Below are positions 67 to 56,967 of a stretch of DNA of 64,000 nucleotides, in pieces. A program made the translations under genes and the position numbers. This DNA is from Tetradesmus obliquus (lineage: Eukaryota > Chlorophyta > Chlorophyceae > Sphaeropleales > Scenedesmaceae): positions 5,738,501 to 5,802,500 of the forward strand of contig CP126192.1 of the NCBI GenBank assembly GCA_030272155.1. Direction: 5' to 3'. The notes beneath the pieces were generated by a model that was not told where the DNA came from, did no database searches, and saw only the letters and a list, made by a program, of their open reading frames with translations. How positions within the stretch are numbered: the stretch's first letter is position 1; each line of letters begins with the position of its first letter.

Positions 67-706
67 ATGGCGCACTGCTGTGCGGCCATCTACTTTGTGA
101 ACTTAAGGGGAGACACCCTAATAGAGCGGCGATACAGAGATGACGTGGAGTGAGTGTGCCTGCAGCATGCGCCCCACACATTGCTTGCTGATGCAGAGCA
201 AGGCGCTACACGAGCAGCACCCGGCATACACTGTGTGGCATGCAGCAGGGAGCTGCACTGTGCAGCAGCTTGCAGGACACTTCAAGGCAGCTGGCTTTGA
301 TGCTGTTGTCATCCGAGCTCCAGCAGCTGCAGCACACCCTGCAAGCACACACAGCATCACCAGCCTCAAACACAGCGCCACACCGCAACAGCCTCAACCA
401 CACCCAACACAGCATCAACCCTTTAACATCCTGCTGCTGCCACATGCAGGCGCGACATGGCAGAGAACTTCAGGACGCAGATCCTCAACAGCAAAGGCGA
501 GTCAGCCAGCCTGCAGACGCCTGTGCGCACGCTGGGCAGCTGCACCTTCATGTACCTGTGCCACGCCGACCTGTACATCCTCATGGTCACGCGCAACAAC
601 GCAAACGTGATGATGGCCTTCAAATTCATGACCTCGGTGAGCAGCAGCAGCAGCTCCCTTGTAGCAGCAGCAGCAGCGGTGTTCATCACCTCGGTGGGCA
701 GCAAGC

Positions 707-747
<41 letters not shown>

Positions 748-801
748 TCTGTCGAAGCAGCAGTGTGGCCTTCAAGTTCTTGACCTCCGTGAGCAACAAA
801 C

Positions 802-836
<35 letters not shown>

Positions 837-3800
837 TCCCGTACTGCAGCAGCGTGGCCTTCATAGTCATGACCTAGGTGAGAAGCTTTCTTGCAGCAAC
901 AGCAGCAGGAGCAGCAACAGCAGCCGCGGTAGCACCCAGCGGCAGCAGCTGCCAGGACGCAAGGAACACAACCTGTGACGCGGCAGAGGGGCAGCACTTT
1001 AGAGGTGGTACATGTCATACAGCAGTGCTCCACCGTACAGCCTGCTCACACTCAACTGCCTGCTGCTCCTCATACTGCATACGCAGCTGGTTGACCTGCT
1101 GCGCTCCTACTTTGAGGGCGCGCTGAACGAGAGCAGCGTGAAGCGCAACTTTGTGCTCATCTACGAGCTGCTTGACGAGACCATGGACTACGGCTTCCCG
1201 CAGCTCACGGAGCCGGCAGCACTCAAGAGCTTCATCCTGCAGAAGGGCGTGCGCAGCGAGCTGGACGCGGTGAGAGGCTTCTATTTTGGCGGGAGAGTTT
1301 GGAGTGGTTTGGTGGCAGCCGTGTTTTGGCGGGAGAGGTTAAGATGGCTTGGTGGCAGCCACCGCAGGGTGCAGCAGGTACAGGAGGCAGCGCGGCCAGC
1401 TGTTACAGCAGCATGGCATACATGCTTGAGGCATGCGGTCAGCTGGTAGCAAAACTCAAAGCTGTTGTGTGTGTGCTGTGCTGCCTTGCGCCGTGCCCGC
1501 AGGCGTCGTCCACGCAGCAGGCGCGCAACGCGACGCTGACGGTGACTGGCGCGGTGAGCTGGCGGCGTCCCGGGCTCAAGTACAGCAGCAACGAGGTCTT
1601 CCTGGACATTGTGGAGGAGGTCAACCTGCTGCTGAGCAGCACAGGTGAGGATGGCTGGAATGGATAGGGGCCACATGTTGCTGTTGTGACATGCTGCTGT
1701 TGTGTCATAATGGATATGACAACCTGCTGCTCAGCAGCACGGGTGAGAGGGCGGCATAGTACTTAGAAAAAGCTGCTATGTGGCACGCTGCTGTGAAACT
1801 AGCCTGAGCTGTGCACCTGTCTGTTTATGCAGCCTGTAGGTGCATCTTCAACTGCAAATGTTCAGCATATTTTCTTTCCGCCGTGCGATGCTTATGTATT
1901 ATTGATGCCCTCTGCAGGCGCGGTGCTGCGCAACGACGTGGCAGGCAAGGTGCTGATGACTTGCAAGCTGAGCGACATGCGCCAAGCTGCACCTGCTGAC
2001 AAAGCCTGCGCCCTGCTGCCTCTGGATGCATCTTCTTGTCGTGTATTTGCAGGCGCGGTGCTGCGCACCGACGATGTGGCCGGCAAGGTGCTCATGAAGT
2101 GCAAGCTCAGCAACATGCCCCAAGCTGCACGTGCTGACAAAGCCTGTGCCCCTCTCCCATTTTCTGTCGCTTCGCAGGTGCCGTGCTGCGCAATGATGTG
2201 GCGGGCAAGGTGCTGATGAAGTGCAAGCTCAGCGACGCGCCAGAGCTGCACCTGCTGACACAGCCTGCGCTCTGCTGCCTCTGGATGCATTTTCTTGTCG
2301 TGCACTTGCAGGCGCCGTGCTGCGCAACGATGTGGCCGGCAAGGTGCTGATGAAGTGCAAGCTGAGTGACATGCCAGAGCTGCGCCTGGGGCTGAACGAG
2401 GCACTCGAAGACGTGACCTTCCACCAGTGCGTCAACCTGGGGGCATACGAGCAAAGCAAGGTGGTGACCTTCATCCCGCCAGACGGCGAGTTCGAACTGA
2501 TGCGGTGAGCGGGTTCACTCAAAGGACTGCAGTCGCATAGGAACACACTCACATGTTGTGTGGTGAAATGCGTGCGTGGTGGGTGGCCAGCGCACGGATG
2601 GGTACAAACGTGCGCATGATGTTTGTGTTGGGTGTGTTCGCCGGTGTGCGCCGAGGGAGCATTAGTGAGGGGCGTTGGGTGCTGCATGCTTGAGGCCTTG
2701 CAGGTGGTGACCTTCATCCCGCCAGACGGCGAGTTCGAGCTCATGCGGTGAACGATTGGCTGCAGCACTGCAGTGATTGGTTGCAGTGGAACTGATGTGA
2801 TGTGTTGGTCACTTATGCGCGCTGCGGTTGCCCAATGCATAACTGCTTGACCTCGTGGCGTTGCTGCTTCCTGCAGCTACCGCACCAGCGAGGGTACATC
2901 AACGTGCCCTTCAAGGTTATCCCAGTGGTAAAGGAGCTCGGCTGCACCCTTGCCTATTCTCATGCTGCTTGACATGCTTGGCTCCTGCCGCCACTGCACC
3001 CGATGGGCATAGGCGCTGGCTGCAAGCAGTGGGTCTGGGCTGTATCTCTGCTTGCTGCTGCGCTCACAGCTCCCTTGCTGTGTCTGCTGCCTCGCCATTT
3101 CTGCAGCTACCGCACCAGCGAGGGCATCAACATCTCCGTGCTGAAGGCGGAACAAGCACTTCATCTCTGCCTGCTGTCCTCACACTGCTATACGTCTGTT
3201 TGGTGCCGCTCTCCCCAACCCCTGCAGCTACCGCACCAGCGAGGGCATCAACGTGCCCTTCAAGGTCATCCCAGTGGTCAAGGAGCTGGGCCGCACGCGG
3301 CTGGAGGCCAACGTGAGCGTGCGCAGCCTGTTTGGGGCCAAGATGTTTGCGCTCAACACAGTGGTGCTGGTGCCAGTGCCGGACTACACCGCAAAGTGCA
3401 ACATCGTCGTGACAAGTGGGAAAGCCAAGTACGACGCGACCAAGAAAGCCATTGTGAGTGGGCGGTCTTTTCCAATAGATGGTTAGGTTTTGGTCAGAGT
3501 TTGTCGGTGCTGTATGGCTGCTTGCGCGTTGTGGGGCAAGTGGGGTGGGTCGTGATGCTGAGTGCTGGCATGGGTTCGCACCGGAGCAGCACAACCACCT
3601 GTCAGCTGCGCTGCTAGCCCCTAACACCAGCCATGCGTGCTGTGCCTTGCAATGCTACATGCACGCGCAAGCACGCCACCTGTGGCTGTGTTGGTGAAGC
3701 CTGTCAAGCTTAATGTTTCGAGCCACATGTCTGGCTGCTGCTGCTGCCTGCAGGTGTGGAAGATCAAGCGCTTCAGTGGCGCCTGCGAGCACAACCTGCG

Positions 3801-4394
3801 CGCGGAGGTGTCCATGGTGTCCACCACCAAGGAGCGCAAGCCCTGGCCGCGCCCGCCCATCAGCATGAGCTTCCAGGTGCGTGTTATCTGAATACCATGG
3901 GCGGTAAGGCTGGTGGCGCTGCTGATATGTTTGGGGCGTGGCAATGTTCCGCCCATCAGCATGAGCTTCCAGTTGGGTTTGAAATTGAAAAAAACATAAG
4001 TGGTATGGCTTGCTGGCGCTGCTGCTACCTTTTGGTGTTGAACTGTGGCCTTGATATACTCGCAGGTGCCCATGTTCCGCAGGTGCTCATGTTTCGTGAA
4101 ATGCAAAGATGTTTCACTCATTCAAGTGTGTGTCATGATCACCCGCAGGTGCCCATGTTCAGCGCCAGCGGGCTGCGCGTGATGTACCTGATCCGGCTGG
4201 CTTGTGCTCATCTCTAGCATGCGATAACCCAAACAACGATTCAAATGCCCCACCTGCAGGTGCCCATGTTCAGCGCCAGCGGGCTGCGCGTGATGTACCT
4301 GAAGATCACGGAGCGGCGGCAGGGCCCCGCCTACAGCGTGGAGAAGTGGGTGCGTAAGATCTGCAAGAGCGGCGACTTCCAAGTGCGGATATGA
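67..4394 (+). CDS. AP2M: AP-2 adaptor complex subunit mu (clathrin endocytosis)
   Basis: Medium (mu) subunit of the AP-2 clathrin adaptor, which recognises YxxPhi sorting signals on cargo at the plasma membrane. Eight exons join in frame: 67-149, 450-636, 1087-1269, 1503-1644, 2312-2504, 3228-3453, 3754-3876 and 4260-4394, giving 423 residues (plant AP2M is about 438). The N-terminal longin-type half carries YFVNLRGDTLI and NNFVLIYELLDE-like sequence (here RNFVLIYELLDETMDYGFPQ). The C-terminal mu-homology domain carries VSWRRPGLKYSSNEVFLDIV, PPDGEFELM, KELGRTRLE, FGAKMFAL and VPMFSASGLRV. PPDGEFELM and the overall match favour AP-2 over AP-1. The acidic linker before DVTFHQCVNL is shorter than in Arabidopsis. 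The start is the first ATG of the conserved N-terminus. Nearly every exon boundary has partial tandem copies beside it (listed separately), so correct splicing must choose among several GT/AG sites. Confidence 0.96.
610..884 (+). repeat. Echoes of the 3' end and donor of AP2M exon 2, with CAG runs
   Basis: The exon 2 end encoding MAFKFMTS, followed by GTGAGC (610-642), is followed by three degenerate copies at 676-700, 764-797 and 854-884. Each keeps the TTCA..ACCTC/CTAG core and a GTGGG, GTGAGC or GTGAGA donor-like site. CAG/AGC runs separate the copies (711-747 and about 808-836). The copies lie only downstream of the real donor. Confidence 0.8.
1715..1750 (+). repeat. Echo of the 3' end and donor of AP2M exon 4
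   Basis: The sequence repeats the exon 4 end coding for NLLLSST plus its GTGAGG donor (1621-1650) with four or five substitutions, and keeps a GTGAGA donor. It lies about 95 bases downstream of the real donor. Confidence 0.75.
1911..2311 (+). repeat. Three upstream echoes of the acceptor and 5' half of AP2M exon 5
   Basis: Units beginning after AG at 1918, 2053 and 2178 each reproduce the exon 5 start (GAVLRNDVAGKVLMKCKLS-like) and the following bases. The true exon starts at 2312. Spacings are 135, 125 and 134 bases. The first two units are in the same frame and can be read through without a stop, so partial retention could be translated. Each has its own CAG acceptor. Confidence 0.88.
2698..2756 (+). 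repeat. Downstream echo of the 3' end and donor of AP2M exon 5
   Basis: A near-perfect copy of the bases coding VVTFIPPDGEFELMR with its GTGA donor (original 2459-2510) sits about 240 bases downstream, preceded by CTTGCAG. It could in principle act as a complete small exon of about 46 bases. Confidence 0.88.
2871..3148 (+). repeat. Two upstream echoes of the acceptor and 5' end of AP2M exon 6
   Basis: The CTGCAG acceptor plus the bases for YRTSEGINVPFKVIP-like sequence occur at 2871-2948 and 3101-3148, before the real exon start at 3228. The first copy has lost one base after CGAGGG, which shifts its frame. The second has diverged after SEGIN. Confidence 0.88.
3945..4205 (+). repeat. Echoes of the AP2M exon 7 end and exon 8 start within one intron
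   Basis: At 3945-3978 the end of exon 7 (PPISMSFQ) is repeated, but with TTGGGT instead of the GTGCGT donor. At 4062-4096 and 4142-4205 the start of exon 8 (VPMFSASGLRVMYL) is repeated behind CAG, once as a short decayed piece and once as a good copy ending in LIR instead of LKI. The real exon 8 begins at 4260. Confidence 0.8.
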
Positions 4395-4429
4395 GGGGCC
4401 GCGGGCAGCGCCTGGCAGGCAGGCTGCAG

Positions 4430-4710
4430 TCAAGGCAGAAGTGGGTGCGCAAGGTCTGCAAGAGCGGCAACTTCCAAGTGCGGATATAAGGCCACGGGCA
4501 GGCAGGCATGCAGGCAGAGGAGGGTGCGCAAGGTGTGTAGGAGAAGCGACTTTTGAGTGCGGATATGAGGGGCTGCTCCTTGAGGGGCTGCAGCAGAGAG
4601 GCCGAGGACCCTTCAAGTGCGGAAATGAGGCTGCGGGCAGGCGGGCTTGCAGGCAGAAGTGCGTGCGCAAGGTGTGCTACAGCTGCGACCCTCAAGTGCG
4701 GATATAAGGG
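4430..4710 (+). repeat. Three echoes of the AP2M C-terminal coding end downstream of the stop
   Basis: The last coding segment, from WVRK to the stop (GGATATGA), is repeated at about 4430-4490, 4502-4570 and 4655-4710, with variants of the cysteine-lysine-serine stretch and a GGATATAAGG or GGATATGAGG end. They lie in the presumed 3' UTR, and each would encode nearly the same C-terminus. Confidence 0.75.
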
Positions 4711-14584: not shown

Positions 14585-17500
14585 ATGATCATGTTGCCTA
14601 TGATGCAGCCCGCGTATGGAGCCCATAAAGCAGTGAATCAATGCTCAAAATTGCAGTATTACCTACGTTACACCGCACGAACAGCAGCGGCTCATAGGCT
14701 AGTGTACAGTGTATCACACGCAGAGCAGCATGACAAGCCTGGTCACCCAGAAGCTGCTGCAAGGATCACAGCCATTGAGCAAGCACTGGCACAGCACGAC
14801 TTCCAGCACAAAACTCAGCTTGTAACAAGCAATCTCATGGATAAGCAGGCCGTGATGCGCTCGCTTGAGCTTGTGCACCCAGCTGGTTACTTGCAGCGGG
14901 TGCAGGAGATCTGCAGTGGTCTGCAGGTATGCCCTGCAGCCTCTGCTCTAGCCCATGTTCTGCACCCATGTGACAGTCAATTTGATATGCTACATACTTC
15001 ACAGCTGTGTTTAGCTGTGCTCAGGCTTCAGAGTAATCGTGGCATCTGCTGTTGCAGGAGCCAGCCATGGTGGATGAGAGCACCTACATCTGCCCAGGCT
15101 CCTTCGCAGCCTGCTGCGAGGTGAGCGCAGCATGGCAGCTGATGATGCTGGTGTTGATTTGCATGCAGCTGCTGCACGACTTGCCTGTGAACGTGTGTGA
15201 CAACAACTTCTGCACCCTACCGACAGGCATCAGCATCACAAAGCCACACTGCACATGTTACTGCCTGAACTCTTTATGCAAACTGCAGATGTCACCAGAC
15301 ATACAGTGACTTCTGCCTTGCGCAATGCTTGTTTCACTGCTTGTAGACGGCTGCAGCAGTACTGGCTGTACTAGATACAGTACTGGACGGCAGCAGCCCA
15401 CCAGCAGCTTCAGGCTTTCCTGCAAGCAGTCCTGCAGGGTTCTGCCTGGTGCGGCCGCCAGGTCACCACGTGCTGCCCAGCAGGCCCATGGGCTTTGGCC
15501 TGGTCAACTTCATGGCTGTTGCAGCACGACATGCACAGCAGCAGCAACGTGTGCCAGTGCACAAGGTGGGTGTGCAATGCTCAATCGTCACATTAAAGCA
15601 CATTAGAGCAGCTGCGGGAAGTTCAGGGCACCAGAGCAAAACTGCATTGGACATGTTTCCAATGTATGGGTTAATCTTGTGGCGCGCGGGCGCTGCGATG
15701 TAATTTGCTCAACGCTGGTGCGGCCGCCAGGTCACCACGTGCTGCCCAGTAGGCCCATGGCTTTGGGCTGGTCAACTTCATGGCTGTTGCAGCACGGCAC
15801 GCACAGCAGCAGCAGCAGCAGCGCGTGCCAGTGCGCAAGGTGGGTGCGGGACGCTCAGGGCACCAGAACCGATATGCACCATAATAATCCCTGTGTTATC
15901 TGTCTCATAGAGCCCCGGCACTGCATTTGATTATGCTTGCACCGTCAGGCGTCATTTGGATGAGTTGATCCGTGCCTGTTGGGCAAGCAGCATGGATCAA
16001 GTCATGCATGGGGTGAGTTGAGCTTCACAATAGAGCTCTCAGGCTCAACCAGCCTGCCCTTGTCCTAATTTGATTTACGCGCGGAAGAGCATAGGCTCAA
16101 GCAGGCTTGCCTGCTTCTGATGCGAGGACTGTAAATTTGTAACATGCATGGGGTGGTGCACCCATGCGCTGCTTGTGCTGCAGGTGCTCATAATGGACTT
16201 TGATGTTCACCATGGCAACGGCACAGAGGAGATCATGTACAGCGACCCCTCTGTGCTGTACATCAGCACACACCAACAGGGCCTGTGGCCATACACAGGT
16301 GGGTGGGTTGTGTGATACAGCTGGGCACTGCACTGCAGCACACGGTGCGCAGCTCTGCTTTTTTTCATGCTAGACTGTCCATCCTTACACGGCTGTGCCC
16401 CACTGGCACTGGTGTTGGCCTGCAGCTGGTTTGCTGCAGCAGCCACAAGTGCTGTTGCTTCCGCCTGCTGCTGCCGCTGCACGCATGCAACAACAGCCCC
16501 CTTTGTGCATTCCGCATCAACACTTGATGCCTCATAAACCAAGAGTGTGCTACTGCTGCTTTGGGTGTTGATGCTGCTGCTGCTGCCGCTGTACCACCAG
16601 GCAAGGTGCAGCAGATCGGCAGTGGCGAAGGCAAGGGTTGCACCATTAACATACCGCTACCTGGTGCGTGCTGGATGAGTTCGCCTGGCTCTGCCCACAC
16701 CGTTTGCTTAGACTGGGGCTGCACAACAGCCTTGCCTTCAGTGTGTGGCACCTACATAGTTTCATGCAGTGTGCTGCGCTTGGCATCAAAGTTGCCTCGC
16801 AAATCCTGCTATGCTCGTCAACGCTCCACACTTCACAATACGAGTGTTGCTGCCTGCCCTGCCAGGTGGTGCCGGCCATGCTGCCATGCAGCAGGTGCTG
16901 CAGCAGGTCATCCAGCCAGCAGCACGCAGCTTCCAGCCAGACCTCATCCTTGTCAGTGCAGGTGAGGCGCAGCGGCTGAGTATGTAGTGTAGTGACTTTC
17001 CAACGATTTACAACAACCCCACGCATAAAACGCCTCGTATAAGAGGAATTTCCAGCTGCTTGGACTTCGCCTTCCGCGTTGAAGGAATGCGCAGCAATAA
17101 CGCCGTGCAAGATACTGTGCGGTTGCTGTTGGTGGCACCAAACTTCGACAGGGATCTATCCAGGGAATGCCAAGTATAGCTAGCACATGTTGTTTCTGTT
17201 GCAGTGGTGCCATCCGGCATGCAGACTCAACAGCAGACATCAGCCTGAGAACCTTGACTACGTGTGAACGTCAACAGTTACTTGGGATGGCCCCTGCATA
17301 CTGCTGTTGCTGCTGCTGATTTTGTTATGCTGCTGCTGATGATGATGATCAATCATCTTTGTCATGAAACTTGTGTTACATAACGGGAGCATCTTTCGTG
17401 TCAAGCCATTGTCAAGCCAATGACAGGATCATCGGGCAACCGCATCCATCAGTATAAAGATTTGCAGCCATCAACTGGATTCTGCTAGTGACTCCAGCGC

Positions 17501-20185
17501 ACTGGCATGTAGTCAGGATTAGGGACGCTTGCCATAACGCAGCTGCTGCTGAATCATGGCAATGCCACGAACCATGTCATTGCCAGGACCAGCTGGGCCC
17601 TTGGCCCAGCATGCCATACTGCTGCAACTGCTGCTGCTGTTGCTGCTGGCCTACACCAACCATGGCACCGCCAGGCACAGCTGGCCACCCGGCCGGCACG
17701 GCATATGACAGCAGTGGCGGCGGCTGCAGCAGCTGCTGCTGCTGACCTACAACCAGCACGGCACCACCAGTCACAGCTGGCCACTCGCCCGGAACGCCAT
17801 ATGGCTGCGGCGGAGGCCACTGCGGCTGCGGCGGCGGCGGTGGCTGCTGCTGCTGCTGCTGCTGAGCTACAACCAATATGGCACCACCAGGTACATCTGG
17901 CCACCCGCCCGGAACGCCATGTGGCAGCGGCAGTGGCGGCGGCCACTGCTGCTGCTGCAGCGGCAGCGGTGGCGGCCATTGCTGCTGCTGAGCTACACCC
18001 AACATGGCACCACCATGCACAAGTTGCCACCCGCCGGGCACGCCATACGGCTGCGGCTGCTGCTGCTGCTGCTGCTGCTGCTTCTGCTGCTGACCTACAC
18101 CTGAAATGACACCCCCCGGGCACACTTGCGGCACGCAGTATGGCTGCTGTTGGCCATAGCCCACACTTATGTCCATGCCTGTATCGCTTCCCAGCCCTAC
18201 TATCTCAGCAATGAACAGCTCCGAGTCACTGCATCCCTGCTCTGCAGCTGCATCTATTAGCTGTGCCACCTGCTGGCTGCCAACTTGACTGATTAGCACT
18301 GGCGGCAGCTTAGTTGACAGCATGCGTATGGTGTTGTAAGCAAACCCGTGCTGCACAGCTGCACTCAGCAGCGTAGCCACGGCCTCGCTGCGCTGCTGCC
18401 GCAACAGCACACAAAGCGTCCATGCTTTCGCAGCAGCGCTTGCGCACTGCTGCCTGCAGCAGATGCAGCACTGCCTCGCTGCTGATGCCCGCTGCTGCTG
18501 GCAGCAGCTGGCAGAGCCGCTCCGTGCAATGAGCCCCCGGTGCTCCTTTCAGCTCTGCAGCTGCTGCCAGTAGCTGCTCCACCTGCTGGCTGCTGAGCTG
18601 TTGAAACCGCACACGGGGCAGCCCGGATAGCAACTCTAATGTGGGTGCAGCACTGACTTTCACGGCTGCTCTGACCATGGCACACACTCCTCACTGGTCA
18701 GCTGATCTACTGCTGGCAAAGAACACAGTGACGTGATGCTGTGATGTTTGTGGTTGTGTCCAACATCGCCGATTGCTGAGTGCAGCAGCTGCAGCACTGC
18801 AGTGCTGCTGTTGCCTGCTGCTGCTGGCAGCTTGCACAGCTGTGCCAGTCTTCCGCCTTGCTTAAGGGCTGCCTGCAGCAGCTGCAGTACTGCCTCGCTG
18901 CTCACGCTTGCTGCTGCTGGCAGCTTGCATATCCAGTCAACTTCCATGCCCGTGCGCACAGCTGCCTGCAGCAGCTGCAGCACTGCCTCGCTGCCAATGC
19001 CTGCTGCTGCTGGCAGCTTGCCCAGCTGCTGCATGCAAGGCCAGGGACCATAACTCTTTAGCTCGACAGCTGCTGCCAGTAGCTGCTCCACCTGCTGGCT
19101 GCTGAGCTGCCCCAGCAGCGCTGGCGGCAGGCCAGACAGCAACTCTGATGTGGCTTCACAACTGTTGGCAGAACAGGTGGCCTTCACGGCTGCGCTTACC
19201 AGCGCAAACACTTCCTTGCTCGTCAGTTGCTGTACTGCTGGCAAACGACACAGTGGTCTTATGCTTTGCGCTCTGCTGTAGGCTAGTCCCTGGTCGCACT
19301 CACTAACTGCTGTGTGCAGCAGCTGTAGCAGTCCCTCACTGCTGATGCCCGCTGCTGCTGGCAGCTCCCAAAGCTGGCTCGGCACCCAGCCTCGCTTGAC
19401 GGCCGCCTGCAGCAGCTGTAGCAATGCCTCACTGCTGATGCTGCTTGCTGCTGGCAGCTGGCATATCCTGTCAACATCCATGCCTTTCTCCACTGCTGCC
19501 TGCAGCAGCCGCAGCACTGCATCACTGCCGATGCCTGCTGCTGCTGGCAGGCTGCATAAGCATGCTGGCATCCTGCCTCGCTGCACTGCTGCATGCAGCA
19601 GCCGTGTCACTGCTTCACTGCTGAGCTGCTTTGCTGCTGGCAGCGTGCACAGAGCCTCCAGGACCTCCCTATGCATATCCTCATCATCATCATCTGTGTC
19701 ATCAACGTCGTCTGTGTCATTGAATGCGTATGGATCATCGAATCTGTATGGGTTTCCTAATCAAATCCGTATGGGTCATGGAATCCGTATGGGTTGCCGT
19801 ATTCGTACAGGTCATCAACTTCGTATGCCTCGTCGGATTCGTCTGGGTCAGCCCATACAGGGGCAGCAGTGCGGCGCTGCCACCGCTGCTGAACAGGGGA
19901 GGTGTCCCCTGCTGCCAGAAGCTGCGCAAGCACTGCTTCAAGCGTTGCTGCATCCACGTGCTGCTGCATGGCTTGCAGCCCCCGCAGGTGCGCCATTGCT
20001 CCTGTGTGCTACCGTGCTGCTGCTGTCAGCAGCAGCTTGCGAGCCACGTCAGGCTCCAGCAGCGCTGTATCTGGCAGGTACCAAACGGCTGTGAGCGCTG
20101 TTTGGTGGTTGCTGCAGTTCATGGCCAGCTGCAGCAGGTCAGGCATGGGCCCTTTGGCAAGTCTGAAGTCAGCCTGACCACACAG

Positions 20186-34571: not shown

Positions 34572-35564
34572 GAAGCAGCATCTGCATTTGCTGCTGTGGC
34601 TGCTGAAGAGCTGCTGCTTGCGTCTGCTGCATCCACAGCTGCTGCTGTTGCCGCCAACAGATCTTGCTGCTGCTGCTGCTGCTGCTGCAGCTCAGCTTGA
34701 CTAGGCACCTCTAGCCCGCCAGGAGCCTGACTCGCTGCTGTTGCTGCTGTGCTACTGTCAGCTCCAGCTGAAGGCAGATGCCCTGGTTGTGTCACTGCTG
34801 CTGGGCTGCTGCTGCTCCAGAGCTGCTGCTGCAGCTCCTGCGGCGGCAGCAGCAGCACAGCCTGGTCACTGCTGCTGCTGCTGCTGCTGCTGCTCCTGCT
34901 GCTGAAACCGTCGTGAACGCGTGCGAGTGCTGCTCGCATCCAGCTGTCTTTTGGCTTGTAGCCAAGAGAAGCAAGCGACAGCAGCAGATCCACAGTTTCA
35001 CCTGCAGCAGCAGGCAGGCAAGCACGGCAGGAACAGCACAGGACAGCGTCAGCAACTGGTCATGCGCATGTATTGATCAGCACCATATTACATGTAGCTT
35101 ATTACAAGCAGCTGCCCCAAAAGGAGGAGCCAGCAAAAAGGCAATGCTCGACGGTGACATACTAAAATGGCGCACGCTGCTTTCAGGACCATATATCATC
35201 GCCAGAACTGCCTGTGTCTGCTGGGTTGGCCATTTCCCAGTACCACCAGCAGCAGCAGTGTTATACACCAGCCGCACCAACACACCTCAAGAGACCTGCT
35301 GCAGCACGAAATGGCTAGCATTGTCTGTGTCTGCTGTGTCGGTCATAGCCGCCACCAGCAGCAGCAGCAGCATGCACACCGGCACCATCAACGCACCTGG
35401 AGAGATCTGCTGCAGCATCGGCTTCACTCGCTCGCACAGCGCTGCTAGCCAGCCTGCATTGGGTGCATACTTGGGCATGCGGGCCAGGCCATGCATCAGC
35501 TGCATCAGCTGAGGGCCGCTAAGCTCCTGAGCATCAAAAGCACGCCGGCTGATGATCTTCACCT

Positions 35565-48799: not shown

Positions 48800-51700
48800 C
48801 TAGCGGTATCTGCTGCTGCCACCATGCTCCCGCCTGCCAGCGTCCCTGCTATCTCTATGCCTCTCATCCCCGCCTTCATAGCGCCGCTCCCTGGAGTGCT
48901 CTCTGCTGCGTGACCTGCGCTGCTCATACCCTGCTGCATGCCTGTCCCCATCCCTGCTGCCTACTCGCGCGTGCTCCCGCCTGTCTCGCTCATCCCTGCT
49001 ACCACCCCTGTGCTGCTCCTCACGTTCTTGGTATCTGCTGCCACCACCCCGCTGCTCCTGCTGTTGCCCGCGGCTGCTGTAGGGCCCTGCTGCAGCTGCT
49101 GCTGGCGGAGCACGCTCTCTGCTGCGCTCCCTGCTGTGGTGTTTGTGTGACTTCTCTTTCTTATGCTTCTCCTTCTTCTCCTTTTTCTGCTTCTTGTGCT
49201 TCTTGCTCCCATCTCTGCTGCGGCTGCGGCTCCTGCTGCTGCTGCGACTCCTGCCACGGCTTCTGCTGCGGCTGCGCTTGCCGCCGCCGCCGCCAGCTGC
49301 TGCTGCTGCCGGCGCATCCCAGCGCCGCTGCTGCCGCTCCCCGCCGCCATTCCGCTCCACCTGCTGCTGCTGCTGCTGCTGCCGGCGAGCATCGTGATGG
49401 TCAAACAGCAACAGCCCCCTGTCACCTTGCTGCTGCGGCGGCTGATTCTTCCGTTCAAAGCGGCCGTCGCCGCCCGGCCTGCCGCGCTCATGGCCGGAGG
49501 CTTCTGCTGCCATGTCGCTGGTGCCGCCGCGCTTGCCGTGGCGCTTGAACTGCTTCCAGATGTGGCTCACAGACTGGCTGAAGTCCACGCGGATGCGCCT
49601 GCAGCAGCAGCAGCAGCAGCAGCAGCAGTGACAACGCGGCAGCAGACATTGTGAGCAACTGCGCCCATGCCACAAGACTGCCGGCGAACAATAGAGAATC
49701 AGTTGAGTGCACCTTGCATGACGGGTACGCAGCAATGCCCGTACGTTTTAAACCCATATTGCTTACAAACGCAATCCTGCGCAGGCGCATGCAGACGCGG
49801 GATGACCGTTTTGCTGTGCCGCAGCTCCAAGTCAGCGTGCTGCTGCCGTTGCTGCGCCCCATCACTGCATTGCAGCGGCAGCAGCAACGGCAGCTGCCGC
49901 TGCTGCTGCTGCTGCTGCTGCCGCCGCGGACACCCACCTGTCATCGATCAGCACGTTGTTCATCTTGAAGTAGGCTGCCTCGCATGCAGCGTCATTGTCA
50001 TAGCCGATGAAGCCGTAGCACAGCGAGTCGCCGGTCTTGTAGTCGCGGATGATGTCACATGACGTCACGTTGCCAAACCTGCAGCAGTTGCGGGCGGTGT
50101 TGCAAGACCAGTTAAGACACAGAGCATTGGTGCTTGATAAGAGCTATGTAGCGGCAATCGAGCCAAGGAGCTCCGCTCTACCTTGGAACCTCCTGCGAAA
50201 GCCCTGTACCGCAAACCCCTTTCCCAACCTCTGCATCACAGCCGCCATGTAACCCTGACCAAGATGAAGCACACCTGCTGAAGATGATCTCTAGATCCTC
50301 TTCACTTGTAACGGGGTTGAGCTTGCATATGAACAGCATGTTGCTGGGCGGCTTCACGTCAGCCTCAGGCAGGTCCCCAATCATCTCCAGCACCACCGCA
50401 CGGTTGGCCGCCTCAGCCTGGCGGCTCTCCTTCTCAATCTCTTCTGCTGGCCGGGAGTCCTCAACTGGCACCCAGTCCTCCTCCAGGCGGTCACCCTGCA
50501 GCCACACAGCAGTGCTTTTGACGTTTGAGTGCGCATTGCAACATGTGATTGGGCTGCTCAATCCCCTCTGCTGGCGGGGAGTCCTCCACAGGCACCCAGT
50601 CCTCCTCCAGGCGGTCACCCTGCGGCACAAAGAGTGAAAGCGAGGGAGGGATGTGGAGTGCGAGAGAGGCTTGTAACATGGGGAAGGCAAGCTGACACCA
50701 AGTGGGGTGTAACTGGGCCAGAAAGAGTGAGAGTTAACGGCGAGAGTGCAACCACTGATAATGAGCATATGCAAGCACTGCACATTGGTGGTTCTGCCGC
50801 TGAACATGATGACACCGATTGATGCTGCGATGCATGCAGCAACAGCAGCTTCCGCTGGCAGCTGCACCTGTTGGTGGCAGTCTGCCATCTGCCAGTAGGT
50901 ATTCGTCATGCCTGCTGCTGCTGCTGCTGCTGCAGCTGCACTCACATGTTCAAACTGCGGCGCCGGTGACGCATCAGGGATAAGGTCGGCCAGCTGTGGG
51001 GGGTCGTCGAAGGGATCGTCCAGCAGGATGGCGTGGCGAATGCTGCAGGCGGGCGTGCAGCACACGTGCAACAGCCAATGCAGACGGTCACGTATGGTGG
51101 AGAGGTGCGCGTATGTGTGTAGTGTGTGCATGTTTCGGTTGATATGGGTGCTTTGTGTGGCACAGCACCAATGGCCACATAAGTCAGCAAGCAGACACAT
51201 ACATGTAACACAATGGCCACATAAGTCAGCAAGCAGACACATACATGTGTTACAGCCACATGTGCTGGCAATAGGACTTAGGTTTATGGTGCAGGTTTGG
51301 AGTTTGCTTGCTCACCGGATGTTCTGCATGGGTCGGCCAGCCGCATCAACAGGCACCTCACTCATCGCCTCAAGCACCTCCAGGCCCTCACTGACCTGCG
51401 TTACATGACAATGTTAAATAACAGTCTTGTAACAAAAAACAACTGCTTCAGCCAGAAGGTGTGTGTCAGGGGGCGGTTTACTTGAGACTGAGACACCGAG
51501 TTGATATGAAGGGGGGGTAAGCGACAAGCAAGCTCGAATTTCATGTGCTCCAGGGGGGGTAAGCGGGAAGCAAAGTGGTCACTGCCAGTCAGCACACTGA
51601 ACAGGTGGGGAAAGCCTACCAGGGGAGGGAGGGGGGGTAAGCAGCAAGCGACTTTGATCAGCGTGTATGCAAGGGCTGGACCCCCGGTAAGCGGTTGTAC

Positions 51701-53408: not shown

Positions 53409-56400
53409 ATGAGCCTCGTTTATCACGCACAAGCAGTGGTTATACGGCTGTTCACATGGCTGTATGACTTGCTGCAGCTTGGCGCTGTTTTTGATGCTTT
53501 CCTCAAAGTCGTCATGCGGGTCACAGAGCTAGACGTGGTGCCGGATTTCATCATTAGACGCGGCATCCGGCTGCTGCTGAAGATCAGGCTGCAGTCTGTG
53601 AGTGCTGGTTACTGGGTACTGGCAGTTGTATAGCACTGGCAACTGGCAGCAGTGAATGTGTGGTGACTGGAGAATCACTTTGCTGCTGCAAGGTCTTTCA
53701 TAGCATCACTCCACCACGAAAAGCTTTTAATATAAGCGTTCTGCCCACCTTTCTATACACGTGCCACTGAGGTGGCTCTTCAACTGCGTGCTAGTAGCCT
53801 GGCATCATCACCGTGTGTGCCATCTTGTGTTGTGGTAATATCTCTTGTTGTCATTGCTGTGCAGATGGCTGGCAGCCTTGAGCAGCAGCTGGAGCGCAAG
53901 ATGGCATTCGTGCAGGAGCTCAAATGCCTGCCGGTGGCGGTGCAGACAGCAGCAGCAAACGAGCAGCACTACGAGGTCAGTTGCAGGCCCTGCAGTACAG
54001 GAATCATAACAGCAGTACAAGTGGCTGCCGGCAGCGCAGGCAGTGCTGTCACCAGCTGGAAAACTTCAGGGTTGTGTTGGATCAAATGTTAATGATGGTG
54101 TGCTTGTTGTTGGAGACACCACCTATTGGAGCTGCAACAGGCATCAGCACTCCCCTTCACAGCAACATCTGCAGCTGCACATCCCCTTAGTCCAGCCATT
54201 GCCCTCGCGAACACCATTCACGCAGCACCTGTCAGCTCTGCTAAGCAGCTGTCAGAGAGATACGTTTGAAATATATTCAACAATAAAGTGACACGGTCCT
54301 GCTGCAGGTGCCTACGGAGTACTTTGTGCTGGTGCTGGGGCGCCACCTCAAGTACAGCTCCTGCCTCTACAACAACCCCGGGGAGGGGCTCAACGAGGCG
54401 GAGCGCAACATGCTGGGTGAGCAGCTGCTAGCTGGCGCTGTTAGTTTGACCAAATGTTGACCAGGGTTGACCTGCAGGCTGGCAGCAACAGTCAGTTGGT
54501 GGCCAATTAACATGCGCAACATGCTAGCTGGCAGCGTTACTTTCAAAAAGATTTGACCAGGGTTGACCAGGAGGCTTGCAGGAACAGTTGGTTGGTGGCC
54601 AAGCAGATGGCATTTGCCTGGCACTCAAGCAGCTGCGGCTGGCTTGCAGGCACGTGCCCCTGCCGTAACACTAATCCTCACCCCACATCGACTGTCGCGC
54701 TGCTGCTGTCACCAAACATTACCTGCAGCGCTGTGCTGCGCGCGAGCGCGGCTAGCAGATGGCCAATCAGTGCTGGAGCTTGGCTGTGGCTGGGGCAGCA
54801 TGAGCCTTTTTATGGCTCAGGCTTTCCCCAACAGCAGCATCACAGCAGTCAGCAACAGCTCCACGCAGCGCGAATTCATCCAGCGGCGCGCGCGGGACCT
54901 GGATGTAACAAATTTGACTGTTATAACGGCGGACATGGTCGACTTCCAGGTGGGCTGCTTGTGTGGCGGCAGCAGCAGCAACAGCAGCAACGACAGCGGC
55001 AGCAATGCGTGCATCTTATACAGATGTTGTGCTGTGTAATAGAGTGATGTGTGCATTTACACAACTTGGCCTGTGTTTCGTTGTTCATGCACCATTGCAG
55101 CTGTGGTGGGCTTTTCGGCATGAGTGTGGCCTGTGCCTTGCCATGTTCTCAACCTGCCCAGCTTTGTCCCCTGCTTTGCAATGCTATCGTTGCTATGCCA
55201 GCTGCTCTTTCTGTGATGCGTACTTGCCAGCTGCCTATCCACTTCTGAGTGTCTCCCGTCTCTTCAACTGCTGCTTCTTGCCCGCAGGCACCCAGCACGT
55301 ATGACCGCATTGTGTCGATTGAGATGTTTGAGCACATGAAGAACTACGCAGTGAGTGTATGCAGAGGGAGACAGGCAGGCTGCTGCGCGATTTGGCAGCA
55401 ACACATGCCTGCACACGGGGTTGCGCTTAGGTTTACATAACCCAGCATGTTCCAGCAGTTGCGCATTATGTGCAAGGCAGCAGCTGATAATCACAACAAC
55501 AGCAGCCTGTCACAAGCCTGTGTAGCGCTGCCATCCTTGCTCACGCCTCCGCCTGCCACACTGCTGCTGCTGTTACTGCGTCTGCTGCTGCTGCTGCTGC
55601 AGGAGCTGATGCGCCGCATCAGCACCTGGCTCAAGCCTGGCGGCGCGCTGTTTGTGCACATCTTCTGCCACAAAAGCAGCCCGTACCACTTTGAGGTGCG
55701 CTGGCAGCGCTGCTGGTGTGCGTAACTGCTGCCAGCAATTGAGAAAAGTTGGCTTGAGGCTGCAGCCTAGTCCTGTTGACTTGTTTGATGAAGCCGCCAG
55801 CGCAGCCATCGAAAGCGTGCCTGCCAAGGCCACCACGGTCGGCCTGCACCTGCTGCTCCGTCACCTGATCGCGGCTCTAATGCCAGGAGACCTGACGTAT
55901 GCACGTCTCAGACATCTGTGTTGTTGCCTGCCGTCATTGTTGCTCAGCTTTAAACTAACATCTGATGACTTTCAAGAATTTACTGCTGCAGGCGAAGGAC
56001 GAGTCTGACTGGATGGCCCGCTACTTCTTCAGCAGCGTTCTATGTTAACTTTACTCCTTTGTTGACCTCCCAACTTCATTTGCAACGTACTGCTGCAGGT
56101 GCAGGACGAGTCTGACTGGATGACCCGCTACTTCTTCAGCAGCGTTATGTGTTGCTTCCTTCACTCTTGCTGACCTCTCAACTTTATTTGTAATGTACTG
56201 TTCCAGGTGAAGGACGAGTCTGACTGGATGGCGCGCTACTTCTTCAGCGGGGGCACCATGCCCAGCCTCGACCTGCTGCTGTACTTCCAGCAGCACCTGG
56301 CGCTGCAGCAGCAGTGGTGGGTCAACGGGTGCCACTACAGCAGGACGCTCGAGGCGTGGCTGGTCAACCAGGACAAGTTCAGGAAGGCCATCATGCCCAT

Positions 56401-56967
56401 CTTTGCACAGGTGGGGCTTAGGGCTTGAAAACGACACTTTAAAATGTTATGTGACGCATGTTGGGGGATGCGGGGCTGGGATGCTGGCCATGATGTGGAT
56501 CTCTTGCAGTACGGCGGCAGTGCATGCTTTGTGCACAATCAGGGTGCTGCATTGTGCATGTGGGTGTGATTGCTGACTGTGTGCGGGCCTGATAGAGGCG
56601 TGGCTGGCCAACCGGGACAAGTTTAGGAAGGCCATCATGCCCATCTTTGCGCAGGTGCGGCTTGTAGGCTGTTTTCGTTATCTGATGTGTCTCAGTGTTG
56701 TGTTGGGCCAGGCAGCCGGCTATGTGCTGGCCATGCTTATGCCTGTGTGTGCACGCCTCACCCCTGCTGCTGCTGCTCCTGCTGCTGCTGTCGGTGCTGC
56801 TGCTGCAGACGTACGGGCGCGACGCGGCGCTGAAGTGGTTTGTGTACTGGCGGCTGTTCTACCTGGCCTGCAGCGAACTGTTTAACTACAACGGAGGCGA
56901 GGAGTGGGGTGTGGGGCACTACCTGTTTGTGAAGCCAGCAGCAGCAGCAGCCAGCAAAGCAGCGTGA
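53409..56967 (+). CDS. SAM-dependent methyltransferase, coclaurine N-methyltransferase / CFA-synthase family
   Basis: Eight exons close in frame: 53409-53597, 53865-53975, 54308-54416, 54729-54949, 55288-55350, 55603-55695, 56207-56410 and 56809-56967 (382 residues; Arabidopsis At4g33110-type proteins about 355). Motifs in order: VPDFIIRRGIRLLLKIRL, NEQHYEVPTEYFVLVLGRHL, KYSSCLYNN, VLELGCGWGSMSLFMA (SAM motif I), TYDRIVSIEMFEHMKNY (conserved Glu/His), LKPGGALFVHIFCHK, FFSGGTMPS, LVNGCHYSRTLEAWL, NGGEEWGVGHYLF. The family is related to cyclopropane-fatty-acid synthases; plant members are annotated as coclaurine N-methyltransferase-like, but the algal substrate is unknown (an amine or lipid). 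Exon 7 has partial copies on both sides and exon 3 has one copy of its end. Confidence 0.92.
54417..54640 (+). repeat. Intron tandem duplication including the end of methyltransferase exon 3
   Basis: CGCAACATGCT plus following intron bases and a TTGACCAGGGTTGACC motif occur twice (54404-54475 and 54512-54575), followed by a degenerate third motif. The echo of the exon end has lost its GTGAG donor (TAGCTG follows). Confidence 0.65.
55985..56201 (+). repeat. Two upstream echoes of the acceptor and 5' end of methyltransferase exon 7
   Basis: Two units of about 108 bases each contain an intron end, a CTGCAG acceptor and bases for KDESDWMARYFFS or QDESDWMTRYFFS, then continue into AGCAGCGTT intron-like sequence. 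The real exon follows at 56207. The two echoes share the AGCAGCGTT branch, so one arose from the other. Confidence 0.9.
56594..56664 (+). repeat. Downstream echo of the 3' end and donor of methyltransferase exon 7
   Basis: Bases for EAWLANRDKFRKAIMPIFAQ followed by GTGCGG repeat the end of exon 7 (56356-56410) about 240 bases downstream. An intact frame and donor are kept. Confidence 0.9.

What the first reader, a model, noticed from the sequence alone, without database searches (positions are those of the whole stretch)
610..4710. Splice-junction echoes: almost every exon boundary of AP2M is tandemly copied with its splice site
In this otherwise conserved gene, partial copies flank exon 2 (3' end, 3 copies), exon 4 (3' end), exon 5 (5' end 3 copies, 3' end 1), exon 6 (5' end, 2), exon 7 (3' end), exon 8 (5' end 2, C-terminal end 3). 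There is a strict polarity: acceptor-side pieces lie upstream of the real exon, donor-side pieces downstream. Most copies keep a usable AG or GT. The same pattern occurs in at least five other genes here on both strands. Tandem duplications that span an intron-exon border would produce this polarity; the frequent CTGCAG acceptor gives microhomology. The result is a gene studded with competing splice sites, which may generate isoforms or act as buffering decoys. I know of no described genome-wide phenomenon of this kind.
Basis: partly seen in the sequence, partly recalled or inferred. Interest (0 to 1): 0.88.

Follow-up and report, generated by a model that had tools for sequence, protein, structure and literature searches.

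The report
Partial exon copies beside splice sites
In a green alga's genome, short pieces of exon ends with their splice sites have been copied into the neighbouring introns of ordinary genes; the copies are real and follow a strict layout, but they look like leftovers of short-range DNA duplication and exchange rather than a working splicing system.

Summary
AP2M (67-4394, 8 exons, 423 aa) carries the listed partial copies, though only 7 of 14 splice borders have one. The genome is Tetradesmus obliquus: 178/178 aa identity to the D1 protease of PDB 1fc7 (species recalled). Elsewhere, 34 of 59 homology-anchored exons have copies in flanking introns (8 of 22 in loci not chosen for copies). Of 79 end-type HSPs, 37 acceptor-end copies lie upstream, 42 donor-end copies downstream, none opposite. 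Duplication across a border plus selection for an intact frame must give this. Spacing is quantised (90-180 bp, then 210-270).

Copies look unselected: 9 of 77 splice dinucleotides lost, stops and indels at neutral ratios; the D1P protein holds the real exon, not the echo. Yet plain one-haplotype duplication with neutral decay fails: intron sides are often homologous (23 of 47) but about 40% diverged, exon sides about 8%, and synonymous differences are in excess (0.60 against 0.39 expected). My reading: short duplications in a diploid with diverged haplotypes, copied or exchanged through exons, the only alignable parts. The duplication part is well supported; the haplotype part is inference.

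The parts
67..149 (+). AP2M exon 1 (start codon at 67); no copies found
450..636 (+). AP2M exon 2
766..788 (+). copy of exon 2 donor end, followed by GT
855..877 (+). second copy of exon 2 donor end, with in-frame TAG, followed by GT
1087..1269 (+). AP2M exon 3; no copies found
1503..1644 (+). AP2M exon 4
1720..1742 (+). copy of exon 4 donor end
1918..1995 (+). copy of exon 5 acceptor end (farthest)
2053..2119 (+). copy of exon 5 acceptor end, with 3-bp insertion
2178..2254 (+). copy of exon 5 acceptor end (nearest)
2312..2504 (+). AP2M exon 5
2702..2747 (+). copy of exon 5 donor end; TTGCAG at its start, GT behind it
2877..2947 (+). copy of exon 6 acceptor end, with 2-bp frameshift
3107..3131 (+). 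second copy of exon 6 acceptor end, 25/25 identical
3228..3453 (+). AP2M exon 6
3754..3876 (+). AP2M exon 7
3949..3972 (+). copy of exon 7 donor end; GT lost (TT)
4149..4191 (+). copy of exon 8 acceptor end, exon part 43/43 identical
4260..4394 (+). AP2M exon 8 with stop codon
4437..4491 (+). copy of C-terminal end, with its own stop codon, in the 3' flank
4516..4570 (+). copy of C-terminal end
4655..4709 (+). copy of C-terminal end
15715..15857 (+). copy of the donor end of a histone deacetylase exon (real copy 15446-15583), 88% alike
55992..56143 (+). two acceptor-end copies of predicted exon 56207-56410 (CMAS-like)
56596..56654 (+). donor-end copy of predicted exon 56207-56410
50554..50636 (-). 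copy of part of predicted minus-strand exon 50275-50495

Best explanation
The echoes are unselected by-products of a process, found in many parts of this genome, that duplicates short stretches (unit about 90-180 bp). SHOWN: units that straddle a splice border leave exactly this layout; about half of the intron sides are homologous at the tandem offset; copies carry lost splice sites, stops and frameshifts at neutral ratios; spacing is quantised. FOLLOWS: tandem duplication across an acceptor can only leave the partial copy upstream, across a donor only downstream, and duplications inside an exon are removed by selection, so polarity needs no special machinery. INFERRED: because exon sides are far less diverged than intron sides and differ mostly at synonymous sites, many copies probably trace to a different, diverged allele. 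T. obliquus is reported as a diploid with extensive heterozygosity; repair or recombination between haplotypes can pair only in exons, and that would bring in, or exchange, exon ends whose introns were already different. After that the copies decay neutrally.
For: Polarity 79 of 79 end-type HSPs (37 acceptor-end upstream, 42 donor-end downstream; besides 5 interior, 1 whole exon) around 59 anchored exons in 18 loci, at 46 distinct exon ends. HMM tables of HSP70 and CCT genes and one kinesin gene show the same polarity. 63 clusters of local direct repeats in 19 readable random 10-kb regions; offsets 0 below 60 bp, 40 of 63 at 90-180, 1 at 180-210, 15 at 210-270; anchored echoes alike. Intron sides above the 95th percentile of unrelated introns in 23 of 47 pairs, above the 99th in 12; the median score matches 40-45% divergence. 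Exon-side divergence: median 8%, 44 of 47 at 15% or less. Synonymous excess in 38 nearest echoes left after dropping 11 exon ends with HMM-visible copies: 109 syn, 68 non, 4 stop; share 0.60 against 0.39, p 4e-9. Neutral phase: stops 8 of 160 nonsynonymous changes in all 84 echo HSPs against 0.027 neutral; 6 of the 38 nearest echoes carry indels for 181 substitutions, like 12 per 356 in recent local repeats; splice dinucleotide lost in 9 of 77. D1P: real exon in the solved protein. Diploidy: PMC12636532 passage, title of Biondi et al. 2024 in a reference list, 208 against 109 Mb assemblies (PMC5552973).
Against: No second haplotype could be examined, so the haplotype step is untested. Synonymous share does not depend on how alike the intron sides are (0.64, 0.66 and 0.56 in the three classes without HMM-chosen ends); a simple mixture of same-haplotype and other-haplotype events predicts that it should. 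Several pairs have nearly identical exon parts, also at synonymous sites, beside dissimilar introns (exon 8 copy 43/43; 1 difference in 67 in L037), which favours copy exchange over plain allelic origin. Changes private to the youngest echo are 4/4/16 by codon position, which would also fit selection on echoes. In random regions direct HSPs also exceed inverted ones at 1500-3000 and 3000-4500 bp (22 and 13 against 0 at score >=60), so the repeats are not only short-range. Why the unit is about 130 bp and why five of 19 random regions have no cluster is not explained.
Confidence: 0.6

Rival explanations
1. Plain tandem duplication within one haplotype, then neutral decay of the copy; the exon side merely looks more conserved because the real exon is constrained.
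For: Polarity; homologous intron sides in 23 of 47 pairs; some pairs have intron sides as alike as exon sides or more (L006, L037, L038, L049); neutral stops, indels and splice-site loss.
Against: Neutral decay lets the exon side diverge at least about half as much as the intron side; observed about 8% against 40-45%. Synonymous share 0.60 against 0.39. Only 1 intron-only HSP beside 25 exon ends with copies in 33 introns (2 with weak hits), where 30-57% of events are expected to be intron-only; after allowing for 26% detectability p is 0.007-0.15.
Confidence: 0.2
2. Echoes are kept by selection: competing or decoy splice sites, or alternative exon ends that are translated at times.
For: Exon side much better kept than intron side; synonymous excess; youngest-echo changes 16 of 24 at third positions. 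Alternative splicing with intron retention is reported for the PCS gene of S. acutus (PMC12899622, passages).
Against: Stops 8 of 160 nonsynonymous changes, not depleted; indels at neutral ratio, 13 of 15 indel-bearing HSPs with lengths not divisible by three; splice dinucleotides lost in 9 of 77; three C-terminal AP2M copies lie behind the stop codon; the D1P protein does not hold its echo.
Confidence: 0.12
3. Concerted evolution: ordinary old tandem copies are repeatedly overwritten by gene conversion from the real exon, while introns, too diverged to convert, drift apart.
For: Sharp end of similarity at the splice signal in many pairs; near-identical exon parts beside dissimilar introns; exon divergence nearly independent of intron similarity.
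Against: Conversion from the real exon of the same haplotype resets synonymous and nonsynonymous differences alike and does not by itself give the synonymous excess. Tracts of 25-100 bp are short for gene conversion (general knowledge).
Confidence: 0.2
4. Assembly artefact: pieces of the second haplotype were stitched into the assembly.
For: Diverged haplotypes are reported; allele-like differences of exon ends.
Against: Arrays of up to seven different copies (L045) and six in a kinesin gene; copies with stops, frameshifts and dead splice sites are not working alleles; copies occur in 16 of the 18 loci examined.
Confidence: 0.05

Closest known systems
Internal gene duplication across exon-intron borders (Gao and Lynch 2009, known here only from the reference list and citing passages in PMC3443670 and PMC4974935)
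   Same: Short duplications inside genes, cited as common and as a source of new introns.
   Different: Here many conserved exons carry copies, often in arrays, with quantised spacing, and exon and intron sides of one copy differ strongly in divergence. I could not read the original to compare rates.
Tandem duplication across one intron-exon boundary in potato RdRp (PMC4974935, passages read)
   Same: A segment crossing an intron-exon boundary is tandemly copied; acceptor signals are inherited by the copy.
   Different: There one recent event made a new spliced intron; here no splicing of copies is shown, and the intron sides are mostly old.
Intron gain by AGGT tandem duplication (Rogers model; review PMC3443670, passages read)
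   Same: Tandem copies with AG and GT; the exon 5 donor copy even has AAG|GT in the real exon and TTGCAG at the start of the copy, so an alternative path could give the same mRNA.
   Different: Copies contain real, pre-existing splice borders rather than an exonic AGGT; no new intron is shown.
Introners (PMC9860276, start of abstract seen in the listing)
   Same: Sequence copying in many genes that adds intron sequence.
   Different: Introners are elements that copy themselves into many genes; here each copy matches its own exon, and intron sides of different loci served as the unrelated baseline without a shared element showing.

Membership tests
Tandem (internal) gene duplication across exon borders | Direct repeats at short distance, above chance | tested here: met
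   29 local direct HSPs in the window against 0-1 in controls; in random regions 168 local direct, 0 local inverted, and 22, 13 and 1 direct in the next three 1500-bp bands
Tandem (internal) gene duplication across exon borders | Copy includes the flanking intron, i.e. contiguous unit | tested here: inconclusive
   23 of 47 intron sides homologous at the tandem offset; the rest cannot be told from unrelated introns
Tandem (internal) gene duplication across exon borders | Both sides of the unit diverged as expected from one event in one haplotype | tested here: not met
   median about 8% on exon side, 40-45% on intron side; single pairs do meet it (L006)
AGGT tandem-duplication intron gain | New intron spliced between duplicated AG and GT, coding sequence unchanged | not testable with these tools
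   no RNA data; one candidate noticed (exon 5 donor copy)
Tandemly duplicated (mutually exclusive) exons | Whole exon copied with both splice sites | tested here: not met
   1 of 85 exon-to-flank HSPs covers a whole exon
Introners | Shared element sequence in introns of many genes | tested here: inconclusive
   1000 alignments between intron sides of different loci show no obvious shared element; no genome-wide search for such an element was made
Selected decoy splice sites | Splice dinucleotides of copies conserved beyond surrounding sites | tested here: not met
   68 of 77 intact, about 6% loss per site against 4-5% difference at codon positions 1 and 2

The most novel reading that the evidence does not exclude
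In a diploid whose two haplotypes are alignable only in exons, repair or recombination between haplotypes is anchored at exon ends and leaves a widespread layer of scars: partial exon ends of the other haplotype, with their splice sites, parked about 130 bp or 250 bp from the real ones. Introns then grow by inter-haplotype exchange, and the echoes are a fossil record of allelic divergence inside a single haplotype.
Probability: 0.28. Interest if true: 0.78.

Novelty: new variant of a known kind. Interest (0 to 1): 0.58.

Why it matters
Copies sit beside 8 of 22 anchored exons in loci not chosen for them, and 34 of 59 in all loci. If that is typical, short border-crossing duplication is a main source of intron length in this alga; its mean intron length is listed as 462 bp, the longest of five green algae in one table (PMC5966456, passage). 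Such copies mislead gene prediction: the simple gene finder built here called several as exons. The split between a conserved, synonymously diverged exon side and a decayed intron side of the same copy is not what single-event duplication gives, and it makes a testable link between heterozygosity, homology-limited recombination and intron growth.

Tried and rejected
Self-trained gene finder: useful for borders of homology-anchored exons, but it adds micro-exons and takes some echoes for exons; for the counts I used only exons overlapping HMM hits, and dropped anchors without a predicted exon (marked '?') and the rows of L005, which repeats L008. The first test of echo selection included exon ends whose copies showed in HMM tables; this favours copies with few amino-acid changes, so I repeated it without those 11 ends; other ends of the same genes stayed in. 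The private-change test is small, still contains HMM-chosen groups, and can be confounded by older copies keeping ancestral states. I expected synonymous excess to sit only in pairs with dissimilar introns; it does not. CTGCAG junction microhomology: rejected on geometry. In-frame use of the donor echo instead of the real donor: offsets show no preference for multiples of three by eye. Functional echo exons by AG/GT at the inner junction: seen at single copies only (by eye). Intron-only repeats: besides the one, one weak one at score >=30 (4 inverted HSPs as control); one more in AP2M intron 3 is visible by eye but was not returned by BLAST, so masking may hide some. Density of repeats against predicted coding share in 19 random regions: no correlation (Spearman -0.17, p 0.48). 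Literature: the rows listed by the searches (titles and starts of abstracts) gave no description of genome-wide exon-end copies in introns of this or another alga; the library holds open-licence papers only. Biondi et al. 2024, Gao and Lynch 2009 and Hellsten et al. 2011 are not held.
Full report
WHAT THE WINDOW IS. The window is C2:5738501-5802500 of a 104.7-Mb genome in 17 contigs. A D1 protease gene on C3 encodes 178 of 178 residues identical to PDB 1fc7 over three exons (89 of 89 to 1fc6). That these entries are Scenedesmus obliquus is recalled, not printed by the tool. GC of the window is 0.57, as listed for T. obliquus in PMC5966456 (passages).

THE GENE AND ITS COPIES. AP2M has eight exons between 67 and 4394 that give an open 423-aa protein, AP-2 mu by PDB comparison. 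Seven of 14 splice borders carry at least one copy, so 'almost every' is an overstatement. Local direct HSPs with score >=60 in the window number 29 at offsets 15-1500, against 1, 0, 0 and 0 in four farther bands and 1 inverted. Exon 7's copy has lost its GT, one exon 6 copy carries a 2-bp frameshift, and one exon 2 copy an in-frame stop.

ELSEWHERE IN THE GENOME. In 19 readable random 10-kb regions there are 168 local direct HSPs with score >=60, none inverted; the next three 1500-bp bands hold 22, 13 and 1 direct ones. They form 63 clusters, which lean to coding sequence: 37 of 63 fall in the top quarter of coding scores of same-length segments of their region. Regions differ widely, from 0 (five regions) to 11 clusters, without correlation to predicted coding share. 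Pfam scans of the genome, exon by exon, show the same kind of copies in unrelated genes: HSP70 on C17 and C13, CCT genes on C16, C12, C17 and C14, a kinesin gene on C2 with six copies of one exon start, an aldehyde dehydrogenase on C14. As raw pair counts by HMM coordinates, 15 acceptor-end pairs have the shorter copy upstream and 10 donor-end pairs downstream; 1 donor-end pair is the other way (between two echoes), 5 are ambiguous, 22 are whole-to-whole. These include echo-to-echo pairs and two doubtful CCT pairs on C17 (23-47 and 461-487); of the kinesin table only the C2 gene was typed in.

POLARITY. With 59 homology-anchored exons in 18 loci, 34 have a copy in the flanks: 8 of 22 in six loci not chosen for copies, 6 of 8 in AP2M, 20 of 29 in the others, and none in two loci. 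End-type HSPs: 37 acceptor-end with the copy upstream, 42 donor-end with the copy downstream, none the other way, at 46 distinct exon ends; 5 interior (two of them cut by the end of the locus), 1 whole exon. A tandem duplication across an acceptor leaves the rest of the exon attached only to the downstream copy, and across a donor only to the upstream copy. The polarity therefore follows from geometry plus selection against duplications that break the reading frame.

SPACING. The best offsets of the 63 random clusters fall 0 below 60 bp, 2 at 60-90, 13 at 90-120, 18 at 120-150, 9 at 150-180, 1 at 180-210, 8 at 210-240, 7 at 240-270, 0 at 270-300 and 5 beyond. The 47 anchored nearest echoes behave much alike, with 36 below 180, 4 at 180-210, 1 at 210-240 and 6 at 240-300. 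The unit thus has a preferred length near 130 bp, with a second class near twice that. Median share of the unit: 77 bp intron, 57 bp exon. I have no explanation for the length.

THE TWO SIDES DIFFER. Exon parts of 47 nearest pairs have a median divergence of 8%, 44 of 47 at 15% or less. Intron parts, aligned at the tandem offset, score above the 95th percentile of 1000 unrelated intron pairs in 23 of 47 and above the 99th in 12; a few are nearly identical, but the median fits 40-45% divergence, and simulated pairs with 10% or 22% divergence fall below the observed median in under 1% of cases. In one haplotype under neutral decay the exon side should be at least about half as diverged as the intron side. 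It is not. In 33 introns with both flanking exons anchored, 12 carry donor-end and 13 acceptor-end copies, and one HSP is intron-only (one more weak one at score >=30).

SELECTION OR NOT. Differences between copy and real exon fall 76/67/315 on codon positions 1/2/3 in 84 HSPs. To reduce choice bias I dropped 11 exon ends with HMM-visible copies and kept the nearest copy of each of the rest: 38 copies, 109 synonymous, 68 missense, 4 stops; synonymous share 0.60 against 0.39 expected if the copy is neutral and the real exon constrained (neutral spectrum from recent local repeats). So there was a phase of coding-like divergence. But stops are not depleted among nonsynonymous changes (4 of 72, or 8 of 160 in all HSPs, against 0.027-0.028), indels occur at the neutral ratio (6 indel-bearing copies per 181 substitutions against 12 gaps per 356), and splice dinucleotides are lost in 9 of 77 copies. 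Translated or splice-selected copies should show depletion of all three; the stop counts are small. In D1P, the one gene here whose protein was determined independently, residues of the real exon and not of its copy are present.

READING. A history of two phases fits: divergence while coding, then neutral decay. The first phase needs a source other than the present real exon of the same chromosome. T. obliquus is described as diploid with extensive heterozygosity and one homozygous chromosome (PMC12636532 on Biondi et al. 2024, passage), one strain's assembly is twice as large as another's (PMC5552973, whole text), and a relative has alternate haplotype contigs (PMC7955037, passages). If haplotypes align only in exons, exchange between them is anchored there. 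Rough bookkeeping: neutral phase about 5% per site (positions 1 and 2, splice dinucleotides), plus allelic differences of perhaps 10% at third positions and much more in introns, gives the observed 19% at third positions and 40-45% in introns. This is inference; the second haplotype was not available, and the lack of any link between synonymous share and intron similarity speaks against a simple version. Gene conversion between copy and real exon remains a live rival, and the two can act together.

WHAT IS KNOWN. Border-crossing tandem duplication is documented case by case (potato RdRp, PMC4974935, passages) and internal gene duplication is called commonly observed there, citing Gao and Lynch 2009, which I could not read. 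What is unusual here is density, arrays, spacing and the unequal divergence of the two sides.

Noticed in passing
C2:7430665-7431657 (L048): Kinesin gene with six copies of one exon start (HMM 260-289); spacings between copies 126, 141, 138, 135 and 141 bp, all multiples of three, in one open frame of 387 aa; the array might be read as coding repeat.
   Followed up: partly
window 2459-2511 and 2696-2754: Real exon 5 contains AAG|GTGGTG where the copied part begins and the copy starts with TTGCAG, so an AGGT-type alternative path would give the same mRNA.
   Followed up: no
window 4437-4709: Three copies of the AP2M C-terminus lie behind the stop codon; two of them have many amino-acid changes, as expected without selection.
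   Followed up: partly
window 17566-19649: Tandem repeats with long minus-strand open frames (leucine/alanine-rich units around 19 kb); no Pfam family reached its cut-off for the one stretch tested.
   Followed up: partly
window 35198-35417 and 54426-54602: Local tandem repeats of similar unit length (113 and 96 bp) without a predicted exon: the process is not confined to exon borders.
   Followed up: partly
L017-L036: Strong unevenness of local repeats between random 10-kb regions (five with none, one with 11 clusters), unrelated to predicted coding share.
   Followed up: partly
L045, L038, L037, L049, L008: Echo units themselves seem to re-duplicate with their intron part (intron sides 88-98% alike in some echo-echo or echo-real pairs), so arrays can grow after the first echo.
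   Followed up: partly
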